Below, piece after piece: positions 1,748 through 22,600 of a stretch of DNA of 64,000 nucleotides. The notes beneath the pieces were generated by a model. That model saw nothing but the letters and a program-made list of their open reading frames with translations. It had not been told where the DNA came from and did not search any database. The DNA is taken from NCBI RefSeq assembly GCF_011682065.1, contig NZ_VUYU01000004.1:62001-126000 (forward strand). Reading direction: 5' to 3'. The position numbers and the translations under genes are program-made. This DNA is from Massilia rubra (GTDB taxonomy: Bacteria > Pseudomonadota > Gammaproteobacteria > Burkholderiales > Burkholderiaceae_D). Each line of letters starts with the position of its first letter. Position 1 is the first letter of the stretch.

Positions 1748-1764
1748 CTGACAAGGGGAAGGTG

Positions 1765-6878: not shown

Positions 6879-6887
6879 TCCCATCCC

Positions 6888-8198
6888 ATGCGCGATCTCT
6901 ATAACGGGGCAACTAGCCCACAGCAGTTGCTCGCGGCCTTGCTGGAGCCGCAAGCGCCGGGCGAGCGCCTGGCGCGGCTCAATACGTCCGTGGCCCACGC
7001 GGCGGGGGCCAGTCCCTTCTACCGGCGCTGGCCAACCCTGCGCGCGCTCGATTCGCTCGAGGACCTGGCCTCGTTCGGCTTCACCTGCAAGGAAGACTTG
7101 CGGGCCGAATATCCCTACGGCCTGCTGGCGGTCGCCCCCGAGAACCTGACCCGCTATGCCGAAAGCACGGGGACCACGGGCGGCGTGAATGCCGGCTTCG
7201 TGACGGCGCGCGACTGGAAAACCAACAATTTTTGCGTCGCCCTGGCCTGGGCCGGGCTGCTCGGCGAGCACGACATCATGGCCGTGGCCGTGCCTTACGA
7301 ACTGTCGTACGTGGGGGCGGACATCGACCGGGTGGCCGAACTGCTCGGCGTGAGCGTGCTGGCGGTGGGCACCAACAACAAGCTGTGCCCGTGGACCCGG
7401 CTGCTGGCCTTGCTGCGCTCGCACAAGGTCACGACCCTGGTGTGCGCGCCGATCCGCGCCTTGCGCCTGGCCGCGATGGCGGCCGAGCAGGGCATCGATT
7501 TGCAGCGCGACCTGGCGGTGCGGCGCATCGTGTGCATGGGCGAAGCGCTCTCGCCCGCACGCAAGGCCCGCATCGAGCGCTTGTGGGGGGCCAGCGTGTA
7601 CAACCACTACGGCATGACCGAAGCCATGTCGGTCGCCTTGCCGTGCCCCCAGGGGCAACTGCACCTGGCCGAACAGCGCTTCGTGTTCGAGGTGATCGAC
7701 CCCGACAGCGCAGCCGTCCTGGCGCCCGGCTCGACCGGTGAACTGGTGCTGACCACGCTGGCGCAGGAGGCGATGCCGCTGGTGCGCTACCGCAGCGGCG
7801 ACCTGGTCAAGACCGACACCAGCCCGTGCGCCTGCGGCAATCCGCATACCCGGATCGTCCATCTGGGCCGGGTGCAAGACCTGATCGGCGCGCCGGCGCG
7901 GCGTTTTCACATCAGCGAACTGGACGACATCCTGCTGGCTGAACCGGGCATCGAGCCCATCTATTCGGTGCAGGGCGACGCCAGCCACGTCGCCATCCAC
8001 CTGATCCCGGCCGAGGGCGGGCACTGGCACGACACCCGCGCCCGCCTGACCACCGCGCTGGAGCGCTACTGCGGGATACCGGTGGAACTGGTGCCGATCG
8101 ACCGCCAGGAGTGGTACCAGCGCATCGACAACCGCTCCAAGCCGGGCACCGTGCCCGCGCCGGCATCACCGCTTTCAACCAAGGAGACTATGCAATGA
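6888..8198 (+). CDS. Phenylacetate-CoA ligase (PaaK)-like acyl-adenylating enzyme
   Basis: This 436-residue protein belongs to the ANL superfamily in its short PaaK-like form. The P-loop-like motif is 'AESTGTTGG', 'YNHYGMTEA' carries the A5 acyl-AMP-binding residues, 'YRSGDLV' is the A7/A8 region, and 'PCACGNPHTRI' is the Cys-containing turn usual for PaaK relatives. The enzyme should activate a carboxylic acid as acyl-AMP and transfer it to CoA or another nucleophile. The lid domain is short (last ~100 residues). No strong ribosome-binding site precedes ATG 6888, only 9 nt after the previous stop, so translation may depend on upstream coupling. Its stop overlaps the next start. The acid activated is unknown; amino-acid-derived or aromatic acids are plausible given the decarboxylase and TrpB2 neighbours. 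Confidence 0.8.
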   Translation: MRDLYNGATSPQQLLAALLEPQAPGERLARLNTSVAHAAGASPFYRRWPTLRALDSLEDLASFGFTCKEDLRAEYPYGLLAVAPENLTRYAESTGTTGGVNAGFVTARDWKTNNFCVALAWAGLLGEHDIMAVAVPYELSYVGADIDRVAELLGVSVLAVGTNNKLCPWTRLLALLRSHKVTTLVCAPIRALRLAAMAAEQGIDLQRDLAVRRIVCMGEALSPARKARIERLWGASVYNHYGMTEAMSVALPCPQGQLHLAEQRFVFEVIDPDSAAVLAPGSTGELVLTTLAQEAMPLVRYRSGDLVKTDTSPCACGNPHTRIVHLGRVQDLIGAPARRFHISELDDILLAEPGIEPIYSVQGDASHVAIHLIPAEGGHWHDTRARLTTALERYCGIPVELVPIDRQEWYQRIDNRSKPGTVPAPASPLSTKETMQ

Positions 8199-9121
8199 AG
8201 ATCGCCCTCGTCCAAAGCGTCTGGCAGCCCGATCCGCGCGACAACCTGCAACACGTGTTGGGCATGATCGACCAGGCTTGCCAGCAGCGCAGCCTCGATT
8301 TCGTGTGCCTGGCCGAATTTTTCCTCGGGCCGGCCTGGTACATGCCGGGCCAGGCGCATTTGCGCGGCGTCACCGACACCACCTTGACCAGCGCCGTGTT
8401 CGAGCAACTGTCGGCCATGGCCAGGAAGCACCGGGTGCACCTGGTGTGCGGTTCGGTGGTCGAGCAGATGCCGGACGGACGCTATTGCAATACCTCGGTC
8501 TTGCTGGACCGCGACGGCAACAACATCGGGCAGGCCAACAAGATCCATCCCTTCGCCAACGAAGCGGTGTCGTGCGTGGCGGGCGATACCCTGGCCGTGC
8601 ACGACACCGAATTCGGCCCGATCGGCATCGCCGTGTGTTCCGACTTCTGGATACCGGAAACCATCCGCATCCTCGCGCTGAAAGGCGCCACCACCATCTT
8701 CCTGCCGGGCGGCTCGCTGCGCCAGAACCTGCCCGCCATGATCAACGCCTTCCGCGCCACCGCTTACCTGAGCGCCGTCAACATGGTGTATTGCGGGCCG
8801 GTTGGCAAGATCACTGGCGTGCGCGGCAACACCTCGATCACGGTGGAGTTCGCGGGCACCAGCCTGATCGCCACGCCGCAAGGCTTGCTGGCGCAAGCGC
8901 CGCCGGATGCCGCCGCCGTGCTCGAAGCGACCCTGTCGGGCGAAGCGATCCTGGCGCTGCGCCAAGCGAACGCATCCGACGATACCTGGATGGGGCTCGG
9001 TTTGCGCCAGCCGCAAGCCTACGGCGCCCTGGAGCAGGACTATGTTGGCCTGAACCGCGACCTGGGGGCGGAAATCAGCCTGCGCATGCGCCAGATCACC
9101 CCCGGCGCCAGCGCGCCCTGA
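8195..9121 (+). CDS. Carbon-nitrogen hydrolase (nitrilase superfamily), intact triad
   Basis: This 308-residue protein starts at ATG 8195 with AAGGAG 8 nt upstream, overlapping the previous stop. The complete nitrilase-superfamily triad is visible: E41 in 'LAEFF', K116 in 'ANKIHPF' and C148 in 'AVCSDFW'. The family hydrolyses or transfers nitrile, amide and carbamoyl groups through a cysteine thioester; most members of this length are amidases or N-carbamoyl hydrolases rather than true nitrilases. In context it may deamidate or deacylate an intermediate made by the PaaK-like or BtrH-like enzymes (inference). A second, degenerate member follows directly. Confidence 0.85.
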   Translation: MKIALVQSVWQPDPRDNLQHVLGMIDQACQQRSLDFVCLAEFFLGPAWYMPGQAHLRGVTDTTLTSAVFEQLSAMARKHRVHLVCGSVVEQMPDGRYCNTSVLLDRDGNNIGQANKIHPFANEAVSCVAGDTLAVHDTEFGPIGIAVCSDFWIPETIRILALKGATTIFLPGGSLRQNLPAMINAFRATAYLSAVNMVYCGPVGKITGVRGNTSITVEFAGTSLIATPQGLLAQAPPDAAAVLEATLSGEAILALRQANASDDTWMGLGLRQPQAYGALEQDYVGLNRDLGAEISLRMRQITPGASAP

Positions 9122-9140
9122 ACCGTCAAGGAGAACGACC

Positions 9141-9932
9141 ATGAAGATTTCCATCATCGCCGGCATCATCGCGTCCAGCCCCGACAGCGCGTGGGCGCAC
9201 ATGCGGCAAGCCGTGGCCGACAGCCCCGCCGCCGATTTCCTGGTATTGCCGGCCCGCTTCCTGGGCGAGGGCGGGGCGCCTGGCGCCGCGCTGCGCGCCG
9301 ACGTGCAACAGGGCCTGGCGCAACTGGCGCGCGAAAAGCACTGCTACATCGTGGGCGGATCGCTGCTGTCCGAGGATGGCGGGCACGATGTGACCTGGCT
9401 GTTCGACCGCAGCGGCGCGCTGGTCCACACCCACTGCACGCCGCTGGACCAGGGGCAGGCGCGCGACGATGCGCTGTTCCCCGTCATCGAGACCGACGCC
9501 GGCCGCATCGGCATGTTGAACGGCGACGATATCTGGGTGCTCGAATCGACGCGCATCCTGAGCCTGCAGGGGGCCGAAGTGGTGTTCGTGCCGGCCCGCC
9601 TGTCGAGCCGGAACGCCGACGCGAAGATCGCTTCGCTGTGGGGCCTGGCGACCCTGAACTGCGTCGCGATCGCGTTTGCCAGCGGGCCGCATGCGGACGG
9701 ACTGGCCCATGCCTCGGTGATTCTGCCAAGCGGCGTGCTGGCCGCATCAAGCCAGGCCGACGGCGCGCCCCTGCTGGCCGAGATCGCACCCGGGCAGATG
9801 GGCAAGCTGCGCGACGCCGACCTGACCTTCGCCAATACGCTGTGGTTCGGCCTGTGGTCGCGCCGCAAGCAGTTGTACGGCCCGCTCCTGGAGAGCAGGA
9901 TGCCGGCGGCGGCGGAGCGTGCGCATGCGTAA
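9141..9932 (+). CDS. Nitrilase-fold protein with degenerate active site (pseudoenzyme)
   Basis: This 263-residue protein starts at ATG 9141 after AAGGAGAA. It aligns by eye along its length with the intact hydrolase just upstream (start 'MKISIIAG' against 'MKIALVQS'; 'ESTRILSLQGAEVVFVPA' against 'ETIRILALKGATTIFLPG'), so the pair looks like an ancient duplication. All three catalytic residues are replaced: E becomes A38 ('LPARFLG'), K becomes H98 ('THCTPLD') and C becomes G128 ('MLNGDDIW'). It should not be a nitrilase-type hydrolase. A role as structural partner of the active copy is the simplest reading, since nitrilase-fold proteins assemble through conserved interfaces; that is inference. 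The reading frame is open and shows no sign of decay. Confidence 0.7.
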   Translation: MKISIIAGIIASSPDSAWAHMRQAVADSPAADFLVLPARFLGEGGAPGAALRADVQQGLAQLAREKHCYIVGGSLLSEDGGHDVTWLFDRSGALVHTHCTPLDQGQARDDALFPVIETDAGRIGMLNGDDIWVLESTRILSLQGAEVVFVPARLSSRNADAKIASLWGLATLNCVAIAFASGPHADGLAHASVILPSGVLAASSQADGAPLLAEIAPGQMGKLRDADLTFANTLWFGLWSRRKQLYGPLLESRMPAAAERAHA

Positions 9933-11079
9933 ACAGGGGCGTGCGCAATCCGAGGTACTGGCCGAGCTCGACAATCTGCGCACGCGCGACGTGCCGTGGA
10001 ACCGGGTGCTCAATTCCATCTGCACCGTGCCGCACGAAGCCGCGTTACGGGCGGGGCAGGCGGCCCTGGACAGCAATCTGGGCGATCTGCGCATCTTCCG
10101 CGGCTGCCGCGAGGTGGAGCAGAAAGCGCTGGCGCTGATGGGCGGGTTGCTCGGCAAGGCCGACTGCGCCGGCAGCCTGGTGTCGGGCGGAACCGAAGCG
10201 AATCTGCTGGCGATGTATGTTGCGCGCAAGCGCAGGCCGGACATCGCCCATCCCGAGATCGTGGCGGGCGAGACGGTGCACTACTCGTTCGGCAAGGTGT
10301 GCGACATGCTCGGCATCACGCTGCGCGTGGTCGGGCTGGACGAGCGCTTCCGGATGCGCCCCGACGCCGCGCTCGAGGCGATCAACGGCAACACGATCGC
10401 CCTGGTCGGCACGGCCGGCAGCAGCGAGTTCGGGGCGGTCGACCCGATCGAGGAACTGGCGGCCATCGCACACCGGCGCGATTTGTACTTCCATGTCGAC
10501 GCCGCCACCGGCGGCTTCATCATCCCGTTTGCGCGCGCACTCGGGCGCGACTTGCCGCAGTTCGACTTCAGCCTGGCGGGGGTCAGTTCGATCGCGATGG
10601 ATCCGCATAAATACGGGATGTCGATCATTCCGGCCGGCGCGGTCTTCTTTCGCGACCAGGCCCTGCGCGACAGCATCAACCTGGAATCGTTCTTCAACGC
10701 CACCCCGACCCACCACAGCCTGATCGGCACGCGCAGCGGGGCGGCGGCGGCGGCCACCTACGCCGTGCTGGAAACGCTGGGCTTCGATGGCTATCTCGAC
10801 GTGACCAGGAAAAACTATCGCGTGATGGATTACCTGATCGAGCAACTCGTGCAACACGGTTACCGGCTGGTCGCGCCGCCGCAGCTCAATATTGTCAACG
10901 TCGACTTGCCGAACGCGGTCGAGGTCATGCGCGCGCTGGAGGAATGCGGCTGGATCATCTCGGTGTCGAAGCGCTTCCGGCATTGCCTGCGGCTGGTTGT
11001 CACGCACCACGTCGACGAAGCCATGGTCGACGAATTTGTCGAGCGATTGCGATCCATCGCCACGCCACCGGCACTCTAG
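9925..11079 (+). CDS. PLP-dependent decarboxylase, MfnA/group II family
   Basis: This 384-residue protein starts at ATG 9925 with GGCGGAG 7 nt before it; an in-frame GTG at 9919 is less well placed. It is a fold-type I PLP enzyme: 'VSGGTEANLLAM' is the cofactor phosphate region, 'VDAATGGFIIPF' carries the Asp contacting the pyridine nitrogen, and K229 in 'MDPHKYG' is the Schiff-base lysine. The short length and sequence resemble archaeal MfnA (tyrosine/aspartate decarboxylase). It probably turns an amino acid or modified amino acid into an amine for the pathway. The start overlaps the end of the degenerate nitrilase gene. Confidence 0.85.
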   Translation: MRKQGRAQSEVLAELDNLRTRDVPWNRVLNSICTVPHEAALRAGQAALDSNLGDLRIFRGCREVEQKALALMGGLLGKADCAGSLVSGGTEANLLAMYVARKRRPDIAHPEIVAGETVHYSFGKVCDMLGITLRVVGLDERFRMRPDAALEAINGNTIALVGTAGSSEFGAVDPIEELAAIAHRRDLYFHVDAATGGFIIPFARALGRDLPQFDFSLAGVSSIAMDPHKYGMSIIPAGAVFFRDQALRDSINLESFFNATPTHHSLIGTRSGAAAAATYAVLETLGFDGYLDVTRKNYRVMDYLIEQLVQHGYRLVAPPQLNIVNVDLPNAVEVMRALEECGWIISVSKRFRHCLRLVVTHHVDEAMVDEFVERLRSIATPPAL

Positions 11080-11134
11080 GGCCAGGGACGCGCCAAGCTC
11101 CCGGACATCATTTGAAGCGAACTGAAGGAGCATC

Positions 11135-11938
11135 ATGGAAAAGATTCTTGGCTTGCTGTTTCCGCTGACGTACATCGTGTTTCTGATCCTGGAGCGCATT
11201 TTTCCCGCGCGCGCACTGGTTCCCGTGCCGCACTGGCGCTTGAAGGGCTTCGCCTTCTTCCTCGTGGGCGGGGCCATCGTCAATACCTTGCCGCTGCTGT
11301 GGCGCGACTGGGTGAGCGCGCACCGCTTGATCGACCTGGACAGCTGGGGCACGGCGGGCGGCGCCCTGGCCGCCATCGTGTTCAGCAACCTGCTCGACTG
11401 GTGCCGCCACCGCTTGCAGCATGCGCTGCCGGTGCTGTGGCGCTTCCACCAGATGCATCACAGTTCGGAGCGCCTGGAGGTGGCCACCGCGTTCTACTTT
11501 CATCCGATCGACACGATCGGCTATACGGTGGTGTCGACTTTCCTCGCTGCCTTCGTGGTCGGGGTCAACATGGAGGCGGCGATTTTGAGCGGCTACTTCC
11601 TGTTTGCCTCGACCATCTTCACCCATGCGAACATCCGTTCGCCGCACTGGCTCGGCTACATCATCTCGCGCCCCGAAGCGCATGCCGTGCACCACCAGGC
11701 GGGCGTGCACCGTTACAACTACGGCAGCCTGCCGCTGTGGGACATGCTGTTCGGTACCTTCCGCAATCCGCGCGAGTGGAATGCGCAGTCCGGGTTCTGG
11801 CACGGCGCGTCCAGCCGGCTGGGCGACCTCCTGCTGGGCAAGAATGTCGTGACCCGGTCCGCGCCACAGGCCGGGCACGCCAGCGGCGCGCCGCACCAGC
11901 CCGAGCACGCGGCCGGCCCGCTCCAGCAGGCCGAGTGA
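11135..11938 (+). CDS. Membrane fatty acid hydroxylase / sterol desaturase family protein
   Basis: This 267-residue membrane protein starts at ATG 11135 with GAAGGAG upstream. It has several hydrophobic helices and the di-iron histidine boxes of the family: 'HRLQH', 'HQMHHS' and 'HAVHHQ'. Such enzymes hydroxylate or desaturate C-H bonds of lipids using O2. The last ~35 residues are Ala/Pro/His-rich and probably disordered. The location suggests it oxidises a lipid-like or hydrophobic product of the cassette, or modifies membrane lipid for its handling; sequence alone does not decide. Confidence 0.8.
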   Translation: MEKILGLLFPLTYIVFLILERIFPARALVPVPHWRLKGFAFFLVGGAIVNTLPLLWRDWVSAHRLIDLDSWGTAGGALAAIVFSNLLDWCRHRLQHALPVLWRFHQMHHSSERLEVATAFYFHPIDTIGYTVVSTFLAAFVVGVNMEAAILSGYFLFASTIFTHANIRSPHWLGYIISRPEAHAVHHQAGVHRYNYGSLPLWDMLFGTFRNPREWNAQSGFWHGASSRLGDLLLGKNVVTRSAPQAGHASGAPHQPEHAAGPLQQAE

Positions 11939-12002
11939 CGCGGGCGCCAGCGCACTTTGATGCAGTCCAATGCAGTCCGACTTTTCACTTACGAAAGATG
12001 CT

Positions 12003-13175
12003 ATGGCACACGACTACCTCTTTACTTCCGAATCCGTATCGGAAGGGCACCCCGACAAAGTGGCCGACCAGATTTCCGACGCCATCCTCGATGCCATCCT
12101 GGCGCAGGACCCCAAGGCACGGGTCGCGGCGGAAACGCTGTGCAACACCGGCCTGGTGGTGCTGGCCGGCGAAATCACCACGCACGCCAACGTGGACTAT
12201 ATCCAGGTGGCGCGCCAGACGCTCAAGCAGATCGGCTATGACAATACCGATTTCGGCATCGATTATCGGGGCTGCGCGGTAATGGTTTGCTACGACAAGC
12301 AGTCGCCCGACATCGCCCAGGGCGTGGACGAGGGCGCCGGGCTCGATCTCGACCAGGGCGCCGGCGACCAGGGGTTGATGTTCGGCTATGCCTGCGACGA
12401 AACGCCGGAGCTGATGCCGGCGGCGATCCACTACGCGCACCGGCTGGTGGAATGCCAGTCGCGGCTGCGCAGGGATGGCACCTTGCCCTGGCTGCGTCCC
12501 GACGCCAAGTCCCAGGTCACCTTGCGCTACGAGAACGGGCAGCCGGTCGGCGTCGATACGGTGGTCCTGTCGACCCAGCACGCGCCGGACGTGTCGCACC
12601 GGCATATCCAGGAAGCGGTCATCGAAGAGATTATCAAGCGCGTGCTGCCGCGCGCCTGGCTGGCCGGCACGCGCTACCTGGTCAACCCGACCGGGCGCTT
12701 CGTGATCGGCGGGCCGCAGGGCGACTGCGGCTTAACGGGACGCAAGATTATCGTGGACACCTATGGCGGCGCGAGCCCGCATGGCGGCGGGGCGTTTTCG
12801 GGCAAGGACCCGTCCAAGGTGGATCGTTCGGCAGCGTACGCGGCGCGCTATGTCGCCAAGAATATCGTCGCGGCCGGCATTGCGCGCCAGTGCCAGATCC
12901 AGATCAGCTACGCCATCGGCGTCGCCAAGCCGATCAATATCACCGTGTACACCGAAGGCACGGGCCTGATTTCAGACCACAAGATCGTCGAACTGGTACG
13001 CGAAAACTTCGACCTGCGGCCCAAGGGCATCGTCAAGATGCTCGATCTGTTGCGCCCGATCTACACCAAGACCGCCGCCTACGGTCACTTCGGGCGCACT
13101 GAGCCGGACTTTACCTGGGAGCGCACCGACAAGGCGGCGACGCTGCGCGATCAGGCGGGCCTGGACCGGCGTTGA
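12003..13175 (+). CDS. metK: S-adenosylmethionine synthetase
   Basis: The protein has 390 residues. ATG 12003 gives the expected N-terminus ('[20 protein letters not shown]'), whereas an in-frame ATG at 11970 would add 11 unrelated residues. Hallmarks present include '[13 protein letters not shown]', the ATP-binding '[21 protein letters not shown]' region and the P-loop-like '[19 protein letters not shown]'. It makes SAM from methionine and ATP. It is placed at the end of a biosynthetic cassette with a methyltransferase and directly before a SAM-dependent peptide N-methyltransferase, so a dedicated SAM supply is likely. Whether the genome has a second metK cannot be seen. 'tgcagtcc' occurs twice just upstream (11961-11977); no SAM or SAH riboswitch was recognised in the 64-nt gap. 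Confidence 0.95.
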
Positions 13176-13185
13176 CTTGTCCTTA

Positions 13186-13214
13186 TAGACATAGTTGTAA
13201 TTTTTGTATTTAAA
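13186..13214 (+). promoter_or_regulatory. Possible sigma70-like promoter before the borosin gene
   Basis: The 56-nt gap between metK and the borosin methyltransferase is AT-rich against its surroundings. TAGACA (13186-13191) and TTTAAA (13209-13214) are separated by 17 nt and match the -35/-10 consensus at 5 and 4 of 6 positions. The predicted start site leaves a very short leader before GAGG at 13223-13226, so this is tentative; read-through from metK is equally possible. Confidence 0.25.
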
Positions 13215-13231
13215 CGTGAAATGAGGATCGT

Positions 13232-14377
13232 ATGAAACATGCAATCAACTCAAGTGCGGGAAGACGCAAAAAAGCTGGCAGCTTGACAGTGGTCGGCTCT
13301 GGAATCAAGAGCGTTGGCCATATCACTCTGGAAACCCAAGGCTGGATAAAGGAAGCAGACATCGTCGTGTACTGTGTCGCCGACCCTGCAACCGAAATCT
13401 GGATCAAGAAGAACAGCAAGGCGTCTTTCGACCTGTATACGCTCTACGGGAACGCGAAGCCGCGTATCGATACGTACAATGATATGGTCGATGTCATGGT
13501 AAATCATACCCGTGCAGGCAAACGCTGCTGCGGTGTCTTCTATGGTCACCCTGGTGTCTTCGTGCTGCCATCGCACAAGGCTATCAAGATCCTCCGCGAC
13601 GAGGGCTACGAGGCCACCATGCTGCCGGCAATCTCCGCGCTCGACTGCCTCTACGCTGACTTGGGCATTGATCCATCCACCAATGGTTCCCAAGAGTTCG
13701 AGGCCACAGACTTGCTGCTTCGCGAGCGGCAACTGCATATCGACATGCACGCGGTAATATGGCAGATCGGATGCGTCGGCGATCTTGGCTTCAAATTTTC
13801 CGGCTACGACAATCGGAATCTGAACGTTCTGGTCGACTATCTCGAGACCTTCTATAAGCCAACTCATGGCGTCATCCATTATCAAGGCTCGCAGTACCCC
13901 GTCTGCCCACCGAGCATCGAGCATGTTGAATTGCGCGACCTGAGGAAATCTAAGGTGACGGGCATTTCAACCCTGTACATCCCACCACAGAAAAAGTCCG
14001 TCACCAGCACCAAAATGATGGCGCGCCTTGGACTGGCCGAAAAACCAGCTGGCGCCAATGCCACCATCGGCGCACTGTCATCAAGCACCGCCCCCTCGCC
14101 CTGCAAGCCCGGCGCGGTGCCCATGGAATATGTGGGCACTCCCAGTCATAGCGGGCTCGCGCAATTCATTGCCGACTTGGCGGAAACGCCATCGCTGCTA
14201 CAGGCATTTCAAGCAAATCCAGCAGCAACACTGCGCTTATGCGCAAAATTGACCAAGGAAGAAGAGAAAGCGATCATGTCGATGCATGCCGGCATGATTC
14301 GGATGGCAATCAAGAATACGAAGGACTTTCCGCATCTTGATCACATCTATCAGGCGCACCATCCGTGTCGCGGTTAA
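13232..14377 (+). CDS. Borosin-type peptide backbone alpha-N-methyltransferase with C-terminal precursor-like domain
   Basis: This 381-residue protein has GAGG 5 nt before ATG 13232. Residues about 15-250 form a tetrapyrrole-methylase-fold domain strikingly like the omphalotin enzyme OphMA: 'SLTVVGSGIKSVGHITLET', 'FYGHPGVFVLPSHKAI', 'DPSTNGSQEFEATDLL', 'IIWQ'-like 'VIWQIGCVG' and 'STLYIPP'. The OphMA active-site group (Tyr, Arg, Tyr after the 'FDL' motif) is present as Y72, R78 and Y82. A Ser/Pro/Ala linker (about 275-305) leads to a small helical domain (about 308-360; 'GLAQFIADLAETPSLLQAF') that resembles the borosin-binding/clasp domains of precursors. The C-terminal 20 residues are polar and His-rich, not the hydrophobic core typical of self-methylating borosins. 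Expected reaction: SAM-dependent N-methylation of peptide-bond nitrogens. Base composition is well below that of metK, suggesting transfer. Confidence 0.85.
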   Translation: MKHAINSSAGRRKKAGSLTVVGSGIKSVGHITLETQGWIKEADIVVYCVADPATEIWIKKNSKASFDLYTLYGNAKPRIDTYNDMVDVMVNHTRAGKRCCGVFYGHPGVFVLPSHKAIKILRDEGYEATMLPAISALDCLYADLGIDPSTNGSQEFEATDLLLRERQLHIDMHAVIWQIGCVGDLGFKFSGYDNRNLNVLVDYLETFYKPTHGVIHYQGSQYPVCPPSIEHVELRDLRKSKVTGISTLYIPPQKKSVTSTKMMARLGLAEKPAGANATIGALSSSTAPSPCKPGAVPMEYVGTPSHSGLAQFIADLAETPSLLQAFQANPAATLRLCAKLTKEEEKAIMSMHAGMIRMAIKNTKDFPHLDHIYQAHHPCRG

Positions 14378-14431
14378 TCCCAGGCTTTGATGGGCAAACA
14401 CTCTTCCGAATTTTTCTTGGGAAAAACCAAC

Positions 14432-16093
14432 ATGACGACCGCTCATCTTCAGCAACAATTCAACGATGCACAACGTTTCTTGTCAAATGCTTTGTCAGGC
14501 GGCAACGGACCTGATAGTTTGAGCCAGCAATACCTAGCGCAGATCAACAACGCTGCCGCAGGCGGTTCCCCAAGTCAACTTTTGGCTTGGATCGCCGGAC
14601 AGGGCTACACCTGCAGCCCAACGCAAATCCAGCAAGCTCAGGAACAAATGTCGAACACGCAGTTGTCGTTCTGGAGTGGCATCTATGGAACGGTGTCGAT
14701 GAAGGTCAATGGCGCATATGTGGCGGCACCACCCCTGATGATTCTGAGCGGCACGCAGGTCACGCTTGACAATGTACCTTTAAAAAACTTCACGTACACG
14801 CCCAATGCGAATGGCATCAACGGCGTGCTCGCGTGGACGATTGCCGGTGGCAATACAAGCACGGGCAGTATTACCTTTTATCTACCCAGCTCGGCTACGT
14901 CAAGCACGAATAGCAATCCCAGCAACTCATTCTCGGGCACGCTGCAGACATCGGCAACTGCTACGGCCGTGCCGTATAGCGGAATAATCGGTCCTATCAC
15001 GGCAATGCCCCTGGTCAATTGGTCCGGCTATTACGGGACTAGTTCCCTGGCAACATCGAGCGGAAGTTATGTCGTTGGCCCGGTGCTGGTGGTCGTCAGT
15101 GCAAGTAATGTCACGCTCGACGGTGTTACGCTAGTTGACCTTTCGTATGACGATGTTGCGAATCAACTAAGCTGGACCTTGGCTAGCAATGCAAGCGCAG
15201 GCAATATTAACTTCGTCAAAGTAAGCACGCCGACGGCACCCTCTAACTACGTTGGCAATTCGTTTTACGGCACTCTGCAACAAAGTACGACCAGCACGGC
15301 AGTTGCATATAGCGGCCAGATCTCAGTACCCACATCGTTGGCGTCTTGGTCTGCTACCTATGGGATCACATCTATTAATACCAATGGAACGCTCACAGCG
15401 GGCCCTGTGCTGGTGGTGGCAGGCAACGAAAGCGTAACGCTATACGGTGTTGCGATTCAGAACTTTACGTTCCAAGGCAATACCTTGACTTGGCCGCTTT
15501 CCAGCAATGGCTCAGCGGGCAGTATTACTTTTGCCACTATCACGACGCCAACAAGTTCTGGCTATGTGGGTAACTCGTTCAGCGGAACTTTGCAGCAAGG
15601 TACCACCGCAGCCCTACCGTACAGCGGTCTTGTCGGCTCCAGCAGCAGCAGTTCCAGTGCCGCCGCACACGGTGCAACGACGTTTGAAATCGTAATGCAA
15701 TATTTCTCATACATAATGGAAATCGGATCGGCACTATATGTGGGTGCGACGGTCGCAAAATGGATATATGGAAAAGTAACCGCCCCCGCGCCCAGTGGGG
15801 CTGTCAGCGAGCCAGAGGTGGGCCCTGAAATTGATCCACTCGATCCGCCGCCGGTCAATACGACAACAGATACCACCACGGATGTCACGACCGACGTGAC
15901 GACTGACGTAACGACTGACGTAACGACCGACGTGACGACCGATGTTACGACTGACGTGACGACCGATGTTACGACTGACGTGACGACCGATGTAACGACC
16001 GACGTGACGACCGATGTTACGACTGACGTGACGACTGACGTAACGACCGACGTCACCACGGACATAGATGTCGATGTTGTTGTCGCGGTCTAG
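14432..16093 (+). CDS. Repeat protein with Nif11-like N-terminus and TTDV array; candidate borosin substrate
   Basis: The protein has 553 residues. ATG 14432 is chosen for its N-terminus ('MTTAHLQQQFNDAQRFL'); ATG 14390 would add 14 residues and neither has a strong ribosome site. Residues 1-70 resemble a Nif11-like leader ('LLAWIAGQGYTCSPTQIQQA'). Three imperfect repeats of about 100 residues follow, each with 'W-S-x-x-Y-G', 'VTL-x-G/N-V', 'L-x-W' and 'NSF-x-GTLQ' elements, all predicted beta strand. A hydrophobic helix ('YFSYIMEIGSALYVGATVAK') comes next, then an acidic/Pro linker, fifteen TTDV units, TTDI, and the tail 'DVDVVVAV'. It lies 54 nt after the methyltransferase on the same strand with the same low GC. 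The V-rich tail is reminiscent of borosin cores, so it may be the modified substrate; it could alternatively be an adhesin-like surface protein. No family is known to me. Confidence 0.7.
   Translation: MTTAHLQQQFNDAQRFLSNALSGGNGPDSLSQQYLAQINNAAAGGSPSQLLAWIAGQGYTCSPTQIQQAQEQMSNTQLSFWSGIYGTVSMKVNGAYVAAPPLMILSGTQVTLDNVPLKNFTYTPNANGINGVLAWTIAGGNTSTGSITFYLPSSATSSTNSNPSNSFSGTLQTSATATAVPYSGIIGPITAMPLVNWSGYYGTSSLATSSGSYVVGPVLVVVSASNVTLDGVTLVDLSYDDVANQLSWTLASNASAGNINFVKVSTPTAPSNYVGNSFYGTLQQSTTSTAVAYSGQISVPTSLASWSATYGITSINTNGTLTAGPVLVVAGNESVTLYGVAIQNFTFQGNTLTWPLSSNGSAGSITFATITTPTSSGYVGNSFSGTLQQGTTAALPYSGLVGSSSSSSSAAAHGATTFEIVMQYFSYIMEIGSALYVGATVAKWIYGKVTAPAPSGAVSEPEVGPEIDPLDPPPVNTTTDTTTDVTTDVTTDVTTDVTTDVTTDVTTDVTTDVTTDVTTDVTTDVTTDVTTDVTTDVTTDVTTDIDVDVVVAV
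15875..16066 (+). repeat. 12-bp tandem array encoding (TTDV)15-TTDI
   Basis: Sixteen in-frame 12-bp units of the form ACG-ACY-GAY-GTN run without interruption, differing mainly at third codon positions (GAC/GAT, GTG/GTA/GTT, ACC/ACT). Synonymous variation with a fixed amino-acid sequence points to selection on the protein rather than recent slippage only. The unit encodes Thr-Thr-Asp-Val. Confidence 0.95.
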
Positions 16094-16138
16094 GGTGTGT
16101 CTGACTAAGCTTATAGAAGCCAGATCATAATTGTTGCC

Positions 16139-16180
16139 ACGAGCACGGCCGTAAAGAAGTGATGGCCGTGCTTGTTGTCA
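16139..16180 (+). terminator. Probable rho-independent terminator after the borosin locus
   Basis: AGCACGGCC (16142-16150) and GGCCGTGCT (16164-16172) form a perfect 9-bp stem with a 13-nt loop, followed by a T-rich stretch (TTGTTGT). It lies about 50 nt after the stop of the repeat protein and marks the end of this + strand run. Confidence 0.7.
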
Positions 16181-16223
16181 ACGGCAAATCTTAAACTGAT
16201 AATGTTTCCGTATTGCCAGCGGT

Positions 16224-16490
16224 TTACATCCACCTGACGGTCACGCGGCGGCGCGCCGGCGCCTCAATCGCGCGCACCTGACGAAGATGGTGGCCAGCTG
16301 CCGCTGAGCGGGGCTTTTCGCCGATCACCTCGAAGTCTGCCGGGTCCAGTCCCGCCGCCTCGTCATTGGCAACGGCGATGACCTCGACCGGCTTCTTCGA
16401 CTCGTCAAAGAACAGGGCCGCGTCATCGTTGCCGTCGATGGGATTACGGTGTGCCGGCAGCCATGCCGGTACGCCGGCCAGCGTGCGCCT
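16224..16490 (-). pseudogene. Coding remnant without start codon
   Basis: On the - strand a stop-to-stop frame (TGA at 16491-16493 to TAA at 16224-16226) encodes about 88 residues of protein-like composition, including 'VPAWLPAHRNPIDGNDDAAL' and 'DPADFEVIGEKPRSAA'. It has no Met before its last codon and no ribosome-binding site, so I read it as a decayed fragment. I do not recognise the family. The rest of 16180-16496 shows nothing else. Confidence 0.3.
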
Positions 16491-16496
16491 TCAACC

Positions 16497-17915
16497 CTAT
16501 CTGATCCTGCTTGCGAGCCATGTTTTATAGGCATCGACCCTGGTTTCGACCCCGGTGGTGCAATCGGACGATCCGGAAGAGGTGATCGCTACCTGGATGA
16601 TTTTTCCGTTTTCGATCAGGAACGCCGGTCCACCCGAGTCCCCCTTGCAGGTATTCTTGCCCGGTACGCCGAAGCTCACCCGCCGGTTTTCTACGTGGTT
16701 GACATACCATGAACCCTCGCGCTTGATCCCGGAGCCCACCGGCTGGCTGTCGACGACGTCGTAGCCGTAGCCCACGAACGTGAGGCTGGTCTGCTTGTCG
16801 ACCAGGTCCTTCCAGTTCGGATTGCCGTCGTGCAGCGGCAAAGCGGCGATGTTGGCGGGCTGCGCAAGATACACAAGCCCGATGTCGTCCTCCAGGGTTT
16901 TGGCGTTGTACTGGAACCCGGAGGCGCTGTCTTTCGGGAAAGCAAGTTCCGAAACGGCTACCGGGCCGAACGTGGGCTGTTGGAGGTTTGCACCGATCAG
17001 GAAGGTCATTGCGGCGAGTTGCTTTTCGTATCCGTGCAGGCAATGCGCGGCGGTGAGCACGGTACTCTTGCCGATGAGCGTGCCGGTGCAATGAAGCTCC
17101 CCCTTGAGCAGGAGCGCGCCGACACTCTTGTACGAGGTGGTCTGCTTGCCGCCGCCGATGTAGGGTTCCAGTTCCCTTTGAGAGGCCAGCAGTGGCGCCT
17201 TCCTCAGGTTCACGTCCAGCCGCGCGGAATTGCCTGACTGGTCGCTGCAGCATGCCCCGGTGTTGCCGGCGTTGCTCGTGAGCGCGGCGGACAGATAAAA
17301 GATGGCGCCCGGGCGCGCCTGTATCTTGAACGAGCTGGCGTCCGCCGCCGTGGGGGCAAGCGCTTTCCCGGCCTGGTCCGTCATTTTGACGGCCGGCGCG
17401 CTACCGTGCGCGGCGACGCCCACGTCGACGATATAGAAAGCGTCGGCCGCATCGGCTGGGAAGGTGATCGCAATGTCGGCCGTCGATTGGGCCACCGAAT
17501 TGGCGCGCGTGTCGTGGCCGAACACGACGACGCATTTGTCGCTGGCGCACATGCCGCAGGTGCGGTAATGGCCGCCGATCGCGGTGGCGCTGGCCGCCAT
17601 CTGGATGCTCATGCCGTCCTCGCGCTGGCCGAGCAGCACCACATCGGCGGCGCCGGACGCCGTACTGCGCCGTCCATAGACTTCGCACTGGCTTTTTTCC
17701 TTGCCCAGCAGCAGTGCGGCGAGCTTCGCGCTGCCGTGGCTGATTTCCGGCTTGGCGCCGAAGGCGGTCAGGGTGAGTTCATTGCGCTGGCTCAAACTGA
17801 GCGAATAGGGCTCGGCCGCCGCGGCGGGATGGACCAAGCTGAACAGGAACAGCAGGCCGATGCAGCCATGGATGGCGCAGGTGTGCACGGCCTGGAAGCG
17901 GTGAGCGCTGATCAT
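16497..17915 (-). CDS. Secreted trypsin-like serine protease (S1 family)
   Basis: This 472-residue protein starts at the ATG whose first base is 17915, one base after the upstream lipoprotein stop, so the two genes are coupled; a longer in-frame start at 17963 would overlap that gene. Residues 1-34 are a signal peptide ending in a poly-Ala cleavage region. Residues about 40-240 are a Cys-containing region of unknown fold with 'CGMC' and 'ACC' motifs. The C-terminal half is chymotrypsin-like, with H291 ('TAAHC'), D344 ('DDIGLV') and S427 ('GDSGGP'). No Asp stands at the usual trypsin S1 position that I can identify with certainty, so specificity is left open. The lipoprotein partner and the two-component genes nearby suggest a regulated extracellular protease. 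Confidence 0.85.
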   Translation of the reverse strand: MISAHRFQAVHTCAIHGCIGLLFLFSLVHPAAAAEPYSLSLSQRNELTLTAFGAKPEISHGSAKLAALLLGKEKSQCEVYGRRSTASGAADVVLLGQREDGMSIQMAASATAIGGHYRTCGMCASDKCVVVFGHDTRANSVAQSTADIAITFPADAADAFYIVDVGVAAHGSAPAVKMTDQAGKALAPTAADASSFKIQARPGAIFYLSAALTSNAGNTGACCSDQSGNSARLDVNLRKAPLLASQRELEPYIGGGKQTTSYKSVGALLLKGELHCTGTLIGKSTVLTAAHCLHGYEKQLAAMTFLIGANLQQPTFGPVAVSELAFPKDSASGFQYNAKTLEDDIGLVYLAQPANIAALPLHDGNPNWKDLVDKQTSLTFVGYGYDVVDSQPVGSGIKREGSWYVNHVENRRVSFGVPGKNTCKGDSGGPAFLIENGKIIQVAITSSGSSDCTTGVETRVDAYKTWLASRIR

Positions 17916-17916
17916 C

Positions 17917-18819
17917 TCACTTCTCGCTTTCTTTGGCCGCCGCAATCGCTTCCTTGATCGCAATGGCTTGCGTCACAAGCGCTTCGGCAATGTCGAGCCC
18001 CGACCTGGTGCCCGGGTCCTTGTCCGTGGTCACCGATACGCCGCATTCCGAATGCGCGGTGATCTTGCCTTTGACGGGGAAGTTCACCAACTGGAAATAG
18101 CGAGGATCCGAAATCTTGACCGTTTTCGTAAAGTGACCGGCGTCGCCCAGCGACACGCGCACCGTTGCGCTGCGGCAGGCCGCATACACGAAGGCGCTCA
18201 CCTTGCCCGACAGCGGCAGTGCCGAGATCGCTTGAGCATCCCTGGGCAGTGCGCCGAAGTCGATCGTGGCCCCGGGCACCGCCACGCCTGACCTGGCGTC
18301 GCGTTCGATCCGCTCGGCGACCATGATGGGCAGCGGCCTGACGATCATGGGCAAGTTCGACAGCCCGAGCCCTTTTGCATCGAGGCCGGCCGCTTTGACC
18401 AGGATGCCACCGACCTTGGTGATCAGCTCGACCCGGTTGTCGACAACTTCCGTACCCGCTTCCTGCACCATGTCGGTGTTGTCGAACTTCTTCAGGTTCA
18501 GGTTGGTACGTACGCCCCACGCGTCGGCATGCTCGACGCCGAGCTTGAATTCTTCGTACTCGACGGGGATCGATGTCATGGTCAGGCTGGCGGGATCGAG
18601 CTTGCCCGTTTTGCCTTTCTGGCCGCCGTCGATCCTGATATGCGATTGCTGCAGGGCGAACGCATCGAACATCGTCGCGTGCACATCGCCCGGCGAGGCA
18701 ATTTTCCGGTACTGGACGCTGGGCGCGACCGCGCATCCGCCCAGCATGAGCGCGCATGCCGCCACGGCTGTTCGGCGCACGGTGTTCAATTGCAGACGGG
18801 AAATGGGACGTTGGAACAT
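17917..18819 (-). CDS. Lipoprotein of unknown function
   Basis: The protein has 300 residues. Start 18819 is chosen because GGAG lies 6 nt before it; longer in-frame starts (18831, 18876) lack a ribosome site. The N-terminus is basic, then hydrophobic, then a lipobox 'MLGGC' with C29 as the lipidated residue. The mature part is mixed alpha/beta with a likely helical C-terminus rich in Ala/Glu/Lys. It has no Asp at +2 after the Cys, so the outer membrane is the expected location. It is co-transcribed with the secreted protease (1-nt gap) and may act as its chaperone, anchor or inhibitor; that is inference from position. Divergent from the response regulator at 19017. Confidence 0.75.
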   Translation of the reverse strand: MFQRPISRLQLNTVRRTAVAACALMLGGCAVAPSVQYRKIASPGDVHATMFDAFALQQSHIRIDGGQKGKTGKLDPASLTMTSIPVEYEEFKLGVEHADAWGVRTNLNLKKFDNTDMVQEAGTEVVDNRVELITKVGGILVKAAGLDAKGLGLSNLPMIVRPLPIMVAERIERDARSGVAVPGATIDFGALPRDAQAISALPLSGKVSAFVYAACRSATVRVSLGDAGHFTKTVKISDPRYFQLVNFPVKGKITAHSECGVSVTTDKDPGTRSGLDIAEALVTQAIAIKEAIAAAKESEK

Positions 18820-19016: not shown

Positions 19017-19664
19017 GTGCGTGTTTTGCTTATCGATGATCATCATCTTTTCCGCCAAGGGTTGAAATTCCTGCTCGCCGACCTGGAAGCGGGTATCGCG
19101 TTTGCCGAAGCGGCCACCTTGCCGTGCGCGCTCGCGCATGCCGGGGAGCATGCGCCCGAATTGGTGCTGGTCGACCTGCACATGCCGGGCGAAGATTCGA
19201 TGGGTGTGCTCACCGCCATCCGCGCCGCCTTCGATGCGTCGATGGTCGTGGTGCTGTCGAGCGAGGACGATCCCGACGTTATCCTGCGCGCCATCGAGGC
19301 CGGTGCTTCCGGCTATGTGCCGAAATCGTCAACGCCCCAGATCCTGATCGCGGCCTTGCGCCTGGTCATGGCTGGCGGCATCTATATACCGCCGCCCGCC
19401 TTGCGCGCGTTTGCCGCCCCGGCTGCCCCGCGCCCGCCAAGCTCGCGCGAATGCGAGAGCTTGTCCGGACGGCAGATGGAAGTATTGCTCAAGGCCGTGC
19501 AGGGCAAGGCCAACAAGGTCATTGCCCGCGAAATGCAGCTCTCGGAAGGGACGGTCAAGGCCCATCTGTCGGCGGCGTTCAGGACGCTTGGGGTGCAGAA
19601 CCGGACGGAGGCGGTGTTTGCCGCCGCGCGTATGGGCTTGCAGGCGGACGTGCGCCCGTCTTAG
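19017..19664 (+). CDS. NarL/FixJ-type response regulator
   Basis: This 215-residue protein starts at GTG 19017 after GGGGGA. The receiver domain occupies residues 1-120, with acidic pair D7/D8, phosphoacceptor D53 in 'LVLVDLHMPG' and the conserved Lys in 'YVPKSS'. A LuxR-type helix-turn-helix covers about 150-205 ('LSGRQMEVLLKAVQGKANK', 'LSEGTVKAHLSAAFRTLG'). The likely partner kinase is the hybrid kinase at 25217-26992, in the same block but not adjacent. Its last 86 bp overlap the 3' end of the convergent triple-fusion gene, so the two messages are antisense to each other there. It may bind the motifs at 18901 and 27082 (inference). Confidence 0.9.
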   Translation: MRVLLIDDHHLFRQGLKFLLADLEAGIAFAEAATLPCALAHAGEHAPELVLVDLHMPGEDSMGVLTAIRAAFDASMVVVLSSEDDPDVILRAIEAGASGYVPKSSTPQILIAALRLVMAGGIYIPPPALRAFAAPAAPRPPSSRECESLSGRQMEVLLKAVQGKANKVIAREMQLSEGTVKAHLSAAFRTLGVQNRTEAVFAAARMGLQADVRPS

Positions 19665-22600
19665 GCGGCGCCCGGTCGAACTTCAGGTCGAGTTGCCCGT
19701 CCGGTCCCACGGTTACCAGCGTAAATCCGGCGTCTTCCTTGTACTCGGTGTAGGCCACGCAGTGGATCGGCAAACAACCGCCCGTCGCGTCGTCCACATG
19801 CTCGAAGCAGGAGTAGTCGGGGCTTGCGGCAAATTCGTCCTCGCGCGCGTTGGCGAACGGGTAGGGCGCATACAGCGGCGAGGCATGCACCGAGCGCACC
19901 TGCACCAGGCGCTCCCCGCACCAGAGCGTGAGCCTGGTGTCGCACGACAGGTGTTCGTCGCCTGACAAGAACACCACATGATCGATCTTGTTCATGACGA
20001 TATGCGCCAGCAGCTCCGCCATGGAAGCGGGATAGCCTTCCCAGCCGTCGCAGCGCAGGCGCGCCACCTCGCCCGCCCCCAGCAGGGCACGCCGGCGCAG
20101 TCCCAGCATGGAGGAGGTGACCACGAATCTGGGACCCTCGTGCGCTTCGAGCAGCCACGATTTGAGCGCGTCCATCTGCGCCTTGCCCATGATCCGCGCC
20201 GCTCGCAGGTTGCGCAGCGAGCGCGCCTCGCGTTCGCTGCGCGTGTCGGCCATGAAGAAGCGCTGGCCCGCGTTCTCGAAGGTGTACCACATCGCGTTGT
20301 CCTGCACGTCGTAGGCGCGCTGGTATTTGCGGTAGCCTTCGCAGCCGGCGATTTTCGCGGCGCGCGCCGCGCCGTCGGCGTGCGGAGCCCAGTTGTCGCC
20401 GATCTCATGGTCATCGAGCATCATGTAGGCGGGCCGCTGGCGCATCACCTCGCGCACGTGACGATTCGCGAACAGTTTTTCGTAGGGCCGCTTGTATCGG
20501 TCGTCGAGCGCGGCGGGGTCGAACAGCCCGGCGCTGGCGTCGCTGTAGATCTGGTCGCCCGCCAGGACCAGGAATGCGGGCGCGTCCGCGGCCTCGGCGC
20601 GCAAGCGCGCCGCCAGGCGCGCGTAGGATTGGTAGGCCGGTTCGCTGTCGAGCAGGCCGGCCGGATACTGGCAACTGCCCACGGCGAACGTGATGCGCGG
20701 GCCGCTATCGGTTTGCGGCGGGGCCAGCACGCCCGCCTCGAGCTGGGCGGCAGGCGTGTTCTCAAGCAGGCGCTGCAGCTCCTGGCGCAGCGCGTCGGGC
20801 AGCTCGCTCCATTCCGAGGGTTCCGCCTGGGCCGGACGTGGCCACCTGCGCCGCTTTTGCAGCCGGCTGCGCGGATCGAGCGAACCGGAGAACCTGGACA
20901 TCGCGGCGCCGGGCGGGCCGGCCACGACCAGCGCTTCGTCGTACACGATCAGCACCAGCGTTCCATCCGGGCCGGCCAGGCCGGGGTCGCGCGCAATGCG
21001 CAGCCAGCCGTCATCGTCCGCATGCGGATCCCATGCGCGGCAGGCGGGCACGAAACCGTCGGCATTGACGAAGTGTTCGTCCATGCGCATCACAGGCACG
21101 CACAGCACCGTGGTGGGATTGGGCAGCACCGGGCTGCACATCAGGCTGAACTGGTCGCTCCCCGCAGCCCCGACCGGGTTGCCCTGGCTGGCCGATCCTA
21201 TCCATACCGGCCCGGCAGCCGGCACCAGCAGCAGGGGAAGCCGCGGGCCCGCCTGCGCCGGCGCCTGGCCGACGCTGTCGTCGCCGCCCAGGAAGGCCGC
21301 CACCGGCGCAAACACCTTCACCGCATGCCGGCCGAGCCAGCTGTCCTGGTGGCCGAAGCCGGGGATGGGCAGCGTCCGGACGGTGCAGTGCGCATCGCCC
21401 AGCACCGCCGCCATGCGCGCCAGGGTCGCCACGCTCGACAAGCCGTTGTGGGTCCCGTGGATGCACAGGGTGGGGAAGCTCCAGCGCGCCAGGCGCGCGC
21501 GCGAGACGTACACGTTGCGGCCGGCGCGGTTGGTGATGGTCTTGCGCCGCGCAAAGTGGATCGATTGCGACACCGTCACCAGGTTGAGCGGCCCAAAGAA
21601 GTCGTCCAGGTTGTCGAGGATGTTGCGGTCGACATTGGCCAGTTCGAAATCGCGCCCGTACAGCGCATCCATGCGGTGGCGGGTCCCGGTAAAGCTGGTG
21701 TCGGCGAAAGGCCACCACGGGTTCTCGATGGCCAGTTCGTGGCGCGGGTAGGGCATGGACGAGAGCAGGCGGTCCAGCAGTTCGTCGCCCAGCGTGGGCT
21801 CGCCCTCGACCCGGAAGGTGTAGGCGATGCGCGGCAGGATACTGCTCACGTAGTGCATCAGGTAAGCCCGGAATACATTGGCCTGGGTAAACACCACCAG
21901 CGGCCCCACCTGCGACAGCACCAGGCGCCGGATACGCGAGGGCAGCAATGCGCGTTCACGGTAAAAGCGCTCTCCCGTTTTCAGCTCGGCCAGGACGGCC
22001 ATGCCGGTCATCGCGCCGCCCATGCAGTGGGCCATCAAGTCGACCTGCGCCTGGCCGCTGGCGCGGCACACCAGGTCGATGGCGGCCGGGATGTCGGCCA
22101 GCGCCACCTGTTCGAAGCTCCACGGCAGGCGTGCGAACGGCAGGCCGCTGCTGGTGCGCAAGTCCAGCACCCACACATCGCGCCCCGCGTTCCACAGATA
22201 GCCGGCCAGGTTGGGATTGACCTGCGGGTGCGAAAACGCCGTGCCGCTGGTGCTGTAGCCGTGCACCAGCACCACCGGCGGCTGGACCGTATCGGCGCGC
22301 TCGTAGCGCGTCAGGCGCGCGCACACCCGGGCGCCGTCGGGCAACTGGTCGACCGGCACATCCGCGACCTGTGGCGCGGGCAGGCCGGACACGAGGCCCG
22401 GCATGCGCTGCGGCGTGCGGGCGCGCGGCGCGTCCGGCTTGCGGAAGGTCCACATGTGCACATTGAGCACCACGCGCGCCAGCAGCCCCGCCAGGCCGAT
22501 CAGATCGAGCAGGGCCGAGGGCTGGTCCTGCTGCGTGATGATGCGCAGCAGCGGCGCGTTTTCTTCCACCAGGAAATCGGTATCGAGCGTGAGCCGGGCG

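What the first reader, a model, noticed from the sequence alone, without database searches (positions are those of the whole stretch)
13232..14377. Bacterial borosin: OphMA-like peptide backbone N-methyltransferase
The methyltransferase domain shares long motif blocks with fungal omphalotin enzyme OphMA (SAM site 'FYGHPGVFVLPSHKAI', 'STLYIPP') and keeps its active-site Tyr/Arg/Tyr group (Y72, R78, Y82). Borosins are the only known RiPPs with backbone alpha-N-methylation, and bacterial ones are little explored. Seen: motifs. Known: OphMA chemistry. Inferred: same reaction here.
Basis: partly seen in the sequence, partly recalled or inferred. Interest (0 to 1): 0.88.

Follow-up and report, generated by a model that had tools for sequence, protein, structure and literature searches.

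The report
Bacterial split borosin methyltransferase-precursor pair
A bacterial relative of the mushroom enzyme that methylates peptide backbones sits directly before the gene of its probable substrate, a protein ending in fifteen perfect Thr-Thr-Asp-Val repeats; the kind of system is already known, but this repeat-cored pair makes a good test case.

Summary
Window 13232-14377 (+) encodes a 381-aa borosin-type peptide alpha-N-methyltransferase. Its best solved relatives are dbOphMA and OphMA (E about 1e-76), with SonM further off (7e-48). Six OphMA active-site residues compared are all kept. A C-terminal helical borosin-binding domain is predicted, but no core follows in the same chain.

The likely substrate is the next gene, 14432-16093: helical leader, three beta domains, hydrophobic helix, then a run of 15 TTDV units whose codons vary synonymously. 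Five other genomes have an MT followed directly by a TT[DE]V-cored protein. The precursor's beta part is homologous to the region after the binding domain in some long one-chain relatives. I read the pair as a 'Class 2' split borosin (enzyme plus binding domain in one gene, core in another), a class already described.

The pair is a low-GC cassette of about 2.9 kb. The metK beside it belongs to an upstream cluster, which a genus-mate has without the pair.

Methylation, its sites and the mature product are untested. Borosins are no longer the only RiPPs with backbone N-methylation (EreM).

The parts
13232..14377 (+). Borosin-type peptide alpha-N-methyltransferase with C-terminal borosin-binding domain, 381 aa
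13271..14047 (+). Methyltransferase domain, about aa 14-272; active-site set Y69, Y72, R78, Y82, Y104, S135, Q178
14129..14359 (+). Borosin-binding (clasp) domain, about aa 300-376: helices 308-318, 320-328, 330-335, 342-350, 353-361, 367-376
   Evidence: predicted structure (block pLDDT 42-90, under 60 from about residue 361); phmmer to MroMA1/MroMA2 covers aa 9-356; Foldseek to OphA over 372 columns
14432..16093 (+). Probable precursor, 553 aa (ATG 14432; ORF open from TTG 14387), 54 bp after the enzyme's stop codon
14432..14674 (+). N-terminal helical leader domain, about aa 1-81
   Evidence: helices 2-22, 30-44, 47-56, 63-76, 78-81; block pLDDT 51-78; alignable in L051 and L052, absent from L056-L058; no Pfam match
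14675..15640 (+). Three beta-domain repeats, about aa 82-403
   Evidence: homologous to the part after the binding domain of one-chain relatives L047, L063, L079
15680..15775 (+). Hydrophobic helix pair, about aa 417-448, ending at K448, the last basic residue
   Evidence: model residues 402-553 have pLDDT under 50; Kyte-Doolittle peak only 1.09
15875..16054 (+). Core: run of 15 perfect TTDV units (aa 482-541), flanked by TTDT and TTDI
16055..16090 (+). C-terminal end of the core region, TTDIDVDVVVAV

Best explanation
Window 13232-16093 is a two-gene Class 2 split borosin. The first gene makes an OphMA-type SAM-dependent alpha-N-methyltransferase with its binding domain in the same chain. By analogy with OphMA it should form a swapped homodimer in which the binding domain wraps the partner subunit (inferred). 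The second gene makes the substrate, whose C-terminal (TTDV)15 tail enters the active site in trans. Backbone amides, most likely at Val and perhaps Thr, are then methylated one after another from N to C terminus (inferred from OphMA, SonM and KchMA). The leader and beta domains of the precursor probably dock it on the enzyme, doing the job that physical fusion does in the one-chain relatives. A protease must then release the acidic tail; none is assigned. Shown: homology, catalytic residues, domain order, gene pairing, repeat conservation. Inferred: activity, sites, docking, release, product.
For: Family. Catalytic residues: with the OphMA mutant data in PMC6108569 (passages). Binding domain: phmmer to MroMA1 over aa 9-356, predicted C-terminal helices. 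Pairing: among 4126 ORFs of at least 80 aa in 87 MT loci, TT[DE]V-type arrays occur in 6, each directly downstream of the MT; [VITA][DE] arrays occur in 26, of which 24 adjoin an MT and 2 are antisense frames over precursors. 29 of 47 tail-bearing MTs adjoin such a core, against 1 of 40 tail-less ones. Domain order: the precursor's beta part matches the region after the binding domain in L047 (E 2e-10), L063 (3e-9) and L079 (2e-16). Constraint: in the 15 TTDV units all four codon positions vary synonymously. L051 and L052 keep the same pair; precursor identity 65% and 46% with the repeats, 61% and 41% over residues 7-476.
Against: No biochemical evidence for this pair. 18 of 47 tail-bearing MTs, among them the actinobacterial sisters L053-L055, have no core matched by my two patterns nearby; for L096 and L116 the contig starts within about 400 bases upstream of the MT. 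The two patterns were written after I had seen the first precursors, so the pairing count is not blind. The binding domain is weak by sequence against dbOphMA (second stretch 5 bits) and its predicted end has low pLDDT. The precursor model is poor (pLDDT 54.6) and its one Foldseek match under 0.001 has TM 0.17. NG86 dS between window and L051 could not be computed, so dN 0.15 and 0.34 give no ratio. The TT[DE]V pairs fall in two separate MT clades, and L056-L058 lack the leader.
Confidence: 0.77

Rival explanations
1. Self-methylating one-chain borosin, type I-like: the enzyme methylates its own C-terminal tail (aa 364-381), and the next gene is unrelated.
For: A binding domain followed by a short tail is the OphMA layout; the tail resembles that of L051 (KNTKDFPHLDHIYQAHHPCRG against KNLKDYPHLEHIYLAHNPKPK).
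Against: The tail is charged and His/Pro-rich, not a hydrophobic core; it is of different length and sequence in L052 and almost absent in L053-L055. A TT[DE]V-cored protein follows the MT in five other loci.
Confidence: 0.08
2. The downstream protein is a structural or surface repeat protein that happens to neighbour the MT; the MT acts on another substrate.
For: Beta repeats plus a Thr/Asp-rich tail would also suit an adhesin or matrix protein. A truncated homologue lies on a Cupriavidus taiwanensis plasmid whose record was not among the 13 found by the MT search; the rest of that genome was not searched.
Against: Its beta part is homologous to sequence joined to the MT in one chain in L047, L063 and L079; the 6 TT arrays found all lie directly after an MT (within loci fetched by the MT); of 245 genomes of the family searched, only this one has a precursor match.
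Confidence: 0.1
3. A tetrapyrrole or siroheme-type C-methyltransferase misread as a borosin enzyme.
For: Pfam TP_methylase and weak NCBIfam matches to CysG, CobM and YabN.
Against: Those NCBIfam matches are far under their cut-offs (YabN 37.1 against 525, CysG 19.8 against 400), while OphMA and SonM match at about 1e-76 and 7e-48 with the peptide-methylation residues kept.
Confidence: 0.01
4. A dedicated three-gene operon in which metK (11970-13175) supplies SAM to the borosin enzyme.
For: metK ends 56 bp before the MT and is one of two metK genes in the genome, 88.6% identical to the other.
Against: G008, of the same genus, also has two metK genes; its second one ends the same upstream cluster, 93% identical DNA up to window 13176, and G008 has no match to the MT or the precursor. 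None of L051-L130 has a metK match in the flanks held, which differ in length. GC falls from about 0.65 to 0.54 here. Co-transcription by position is still possible.
Confidence: 0.05

Closest known systems
OphMA / dbOphMA (type I fused borosins, fungi)
   Same: 38-40% identity in the Foldseek alignments, six of six compared active-site residues, C-terminal helical binding domain
   Different: OphMA carries its core at its own C-terminus; here the probable core is in a separate protein. Bacterial, with a repetitive acidic core
SonM-SonA (type IV split borosin, Shewanella)
   Same: MT family and separate precursor gene
   Different: SonM lacks the binding domain, which is on SonA (PMC8429565, passages); here it is on the enzyme. 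SonM lies among tail-less MTs in the tree; the precursor here is 553 aa against about 71-75
Class 2 borosins (MT and BBD in one protein, core in another; Fig. 1 legend of PMC11395268)
   Same: This gene and domain layout
   Different: I could not match the pair to a numbered type, as the papers that define types V-X were not available. The VD-core pairs found here resemble 'type VIII' (about 160 aa after the core); the window's precursor ends with the core
KchMA (type III fused borosin, bacterial, tested)
   Same: The nine residues reported as pivotal there have the same letters here at a constant offset of one; its residues 742-796 carry up to 11 methylations (PMC11395268)

Membership tests
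Borosin alpha-N-methyltransferase | MT domain homologous to OphMA/SonM | tested here: met
Borosin alpha-N-methyltransferase | Conserved Tyr/Arg/Tyr and SAM/substrate residues | tested here: met
   OphMA mutants in PMC6108569 (passages)
Borosin alpha-N-methyltransferase | Backbone alpha-N-methylation of a ribosomal peptide | not testable with these tools
   needs co-expression and LC-MS/MS
Class 2 split borosin | MT and binding domain in one protein | tested here: met
   domain end modelled with low pLDDT
Class 2 split borosin | Core peptide in a separate protein | tested here: inconclusive
   a separate repeat-cored protein is encoded next door; that it is the substrate is inferred
Type I-III fused borosin | Core at the C-terminus of the MT chain | tested here: not met
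   the 381-aa chain ends soon after the binding domain, with no core-like stretch
Type IV split borosin (SonM-SonA) | Tail-less MT, binding domain on the precursor | tested here: not met
Type VIII-like | About 160 aa after the core | tested here: not met
   the precursor ends 12 aa after the last TTDV unit
Borosin | Head-to-tail homodimer | not testable with these tools
   only a monomer was modelled

The most novel reading that the evidence does not exclude
TT[DE]V-core pairs are a distinct borosin variant: the enzyme steps through a strict four-residue repeat and makes a long, regularly N-methylated acidic peptide (about 60-75 residues, 15 or more methyls). Period-2 ([VIT]D), period-3 (AEA/EVA) and period-4 (TTDV) cores of one enzyme family would then be alternative repeat lengths of a shared product type.
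Probability: 0.3. Interest if true: 0.7.

Novelty: new member of a known kind. Interest (0 to 1): 0.46.

Why it matters
Backbone N-methylation makes peptides resistant to proteases and membrane-permeant, and is hard to do chemically. A natural enzyme-substrate pair whose substrate holds 15 identical tetrapeptides would allow site preference, directionality and processivity to be read from one mass spectrum. The related one-chain and two-gene forms also bear on how RiPP enzymes and precursors become fused or split.

Tried and rejected
Dedicated metK: rejected, because G008 has the same metK and upstream cluster without the pair. Tetrapyrrole methylase: rejected. Trypsin-like protease gene (16497-17963, minus strand, Trypsin 75.9 bits) as the maturation protease: not adopted. 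It faces the pair, and I did not search the relatives for it; the only hint is that the precursor has no Lys or Arg after K448. Membrane anchor before the core: weak. 9 of 30 core-bearing ORFs reach a Kyte-Doolittle peak of 1.6 in the 130 residues before the core, 3 of 30 reach it further upstream, and the window's own value is 1.09. Fold of the beta domains: no usable match. Promoter-like and terminator-like sites: 2 and 2 against 2.3 and 3.5 in shuffles. RNA fold of 14350-14450: z -0.16. Literature: no paper of the held library contains TTEVTTEV, TTDVTTDV, VTTDVTTD or VTTEVTTE. Three identifiers recalled for the 2022 papers on bacterial borosin types were looked up and none is held, so this says nothing about whether TT[DE]V cores are already in print.

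Full report
1. The observation. The ORF at 13232-14377 (+) is real and encodes 381 aa. Pfam places residues 18-160 in TP_methylase (61.2 bits, cut-off 27.8). Among solved structures the matches are dbOphMA (9e-77), OphMA chains (1.4e-75 to 2.8e-74), MroMA1 and MroMA2 (3.4e-74, covering aa 9-356) and SonM (6.6e-48). In a 90-row alignment of MT domains the window residues Y69, Y72, R78, Y82, Y104 and Q178 have the same letters as OphMA, and stand at a constant offset of six from OphMA Y63, Y66, R72, Y76, Y98 and Q172. In OphMA, R72A, Y76F and Y98A showed no detectable methylation on purification (Y98A a little after 12 days with SAM), and Y63F, Y66F and Q172A reduced methylation (PMC6108569, passages). 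The nine residues reported as pivotal in the tested bacterial enzyme KchMA (C49, Y70, Y73, R79, Y83, Y105, S136, Q179, F188; PMC11395268, parts 1-2 of 5 and passages) have the same letters here at an offset of one. The same paper reports that Y73F kept most of its activity, so the Tyr at 72 need not be essential.

2. Domain layout of the enzyme. The AlphaFold model from a 15-row alignment (mean pLDDT 75.8) shows the MT domain, a low-confidence linker (271-299) and C-terminal helices at 308-376. Foldseek aligns the model with OphA over 372 columns (E 9e-32, TM 0.62). The rmsd is large, about 18 A; I take this to reflect the placement of the C-terminal part. The listed SonM rows align over 254-263 columns at 3.2-4.0 A. 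The C-terminal helices correspond to the clasp or borosin-binding domain, a five-helix bundle in SonA that is homologous to part of OphMA's clasp (PMC8429565, passages). Nothing after that domain looks like a hydrophobic core.

3. The neighbour. The next ORF has its ATG at 14432, 54 bp after the enzyme's stop codon, and runs to 16093 (553 aa). It has a helical N-terminal part, three beta domains, a hydrophobic helix region, a PPP linker, 15 perfect TTDV units (aa 482-541) and the end TTDIDVDVVVAV. TRF finds the DNA repeat at 15887-16053, 82% matching at period 12 and 88% at period 24. The run was picked as perfect and is flanked by TTDT and TTDI, but within it all four codon positions use two to four synonymous codons. 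DNA that has drifted at silent sites while the peptide stayed perfect suggests selection on the peptide. dS between window and L051 could not be computed; dN is 0.15 for the MT and 0.34 for the precursor without its core.

4. Relatives. The nearest are L051 Candidatus Methylumidiphilus alinenensis (77% over query residues 1-378), L052 Azorhizobium doebereinerae (59%) and three actinobacteria, L053-L055 (50-52%). L051 and L052 have the same two genes in the same order. Their precursors are 65% and 46% identical to the window's with the repeats counted, 61% and 41% over residues 7-476, and end in TTDV/TTEV arrays. Burkholderia arboris (L056), Sphingomonas sp. ATCC 31555 (L057) and an alphaproteobacterial MAG (L058) also have a TTEV-cored protein directly downstream, shorter, without the leader and with fewer beta domains.

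5. Pairing, counted. In 87 loci (window plus L045-L130) I scanned 4126 ORFs of at least 80 aa. TT[DE]V-type arrays occur in 6 and all 6 lie directly downstream of the MT. Arrays of [VITA][DE] occur in 26: 24 adjoin an MT on its strand, 2 are antisense frames over precursors. By enzyme: of 47 MTs with at least 60 aa after the MT domain, 29 adjoin a core (6 TT downstream, 22 VD upstream, 1 VD downstream) and 18 do not; of 40 tail-less MTs, 1 does. Limits: the patterns were written after seeing the first precursors, the loci were all fetched by their MT, some are near copies (L046/L082, L095/L096), and L096 and L116 start within about 400 bases upstream of the MT. Among the 18 are one-chain proteins such as L063 (Erwinia), which ends in an AEA/EVA array, and two of the three actinobacteria, L053 and L055, which have 50-54-aa ORFs with EVAEVEVVEEA-like ends just downstream; my list showed none for L054. 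I did not test those as precursors.

6. Why the neighbour is probably the substrate. In some one-chain relatives the MT and binding domain are followed by beta domains that match the window's precursor: L047 (456-782 to precursor 33-386, 27%, E 2e-10), L079 (685-970 to 78-376, 29%, 2e-16), L063 (594-826 to 53-282, 27%, 3e-9), and weakly L083 (E 8e-4) (L047). The window pair therefore looks like such a chain cut between binding domain and leader. Which form is older I cannot say.

7. Tree. In a 90-row IQ-TREE of MT domains the window groups with L051 (100/98) and L052 (96/79, below the tree's own mark for firm support), then with the actinobacteria (98/83). L056-L058 form a second TT clade (100/100). 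OphMA and dbOphMA lie among tail-bearing bacterial MTs (100/91 with L060, L063 and L091). SonM lies among tail-less MTs. The TT label needs 2 changes on the tree against a shuffled mean of 5.9, so it either arose twice or was lost between.

8. Origin in this genome. The MT matches in 1 of 17 genomes of the genus, 15 of 245 of the family, two of these weak, and 37 of 398 of the phylum, 22 of these at E 2e-5 or weaker; each count includes this genome. The precursor matches in 1 of 245 of the family. GC is 0.52-0.55 over 13000-16000, against 0.63-0.68 over 10000-13000; it is 0.59-0.60 over 16000-17000, so the right edge is not sharp. GC3 is 0.65 (MT) and 0.58 (precursor) against 0.85 (metK) and 0.87 (decarboxylase). 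G008, of the same genus, carries the upstream cluster at 93% DNA identity from 4961 (where the fetched stretch ends) to 13176, the end of metK, and has no match to the MT or the precursor. The pair is therefore best read as an acquired cassette, and metK as part of the upstream cluster.

9. How it probably works. The enzyme dimer binds SAM (inferred from OphMA). The precursor docks through its leader and/or beta domains (inferred). Its TTDV tail enters the site and amides are methylated in the N-to-C direction reported for OphMA and the split borosins (PMC8429565, passages). KchMA prefers nonpolar residues such as Ala, Val and Leu, with some modification of Asp (PMC11395268), so Val is the first guess. 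Release and final product are unknown.

10. Known or new. The layout is 'Class 2' of the 2024 figure legend (PMC11395268), so the kind is known. Whether TT[DE]V cores are described I could not settle: the searches showed no such text, but the 2022 papers credited with types V-X (Cho et al. and Imani et al., named in PMC11285071) were not available under the identifiers I recalled. I therefore file it as a new member of a known kind.

Noticed in passing
window 1735-13175: Co-directional cluster: PALP enzyme, BtrH_N plus DUF4872 protein, a molybdopterin-oxidoreductase-like protein (by eye, not scanned), class I methyltransferase, PaaK-like AMP ligase, two carbon-nitrogen hydrolases, MfnA-like decarboxylase (382.8 bits, cut-off 299.4), fatty-acid hydroxylase, second metK. 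Its 4961-13176 part is 93% identical in G008 of the same genus.
   Followed up: partly
window 16497-17963 (minus): Trypsin-like serine protease gene facing the precursor; the precursor has no Lys or Arg after K448.
   Followed up: partly
window 16314-16445: About 130 bp found again at 75-89% identity in genus-mates G004, G008 and G009 (twice): a small dispersed element just after the cassette.
   Followed up: no
window 19579-25362 (minus): 1927-aa ORF that by eye joins a GMC-type oxidoreductase, an alpha/beta hydrolase and a PhoD-like part; not scanned.
   Followed up: no
L053:9160-9324 and L055:9107-9259: Tiny 50-54-aa ORFs just after actinobacterial MT-BBD genes, ending EVAEVEVVEEA-like: possible minimal borosin precursors.
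   Followed up: no
L163:5983-7158 (NZ_LT984809.1): Precursor homologue with a TTEV array, lacking the N-terminal part, near an IS5 transposase on a Cupriavidus taiwanensis conjugative plasmid; the MT search did not list this record.
   Followed up: partly
L057:10315-11001 and L058:10322-10987: A similar-looking third gene after the TTEV precursor, with only a weak PhyH match (E 0.008 and 0.014, under cut-off): possible tailoring oxygenase.
   Followed up: partly
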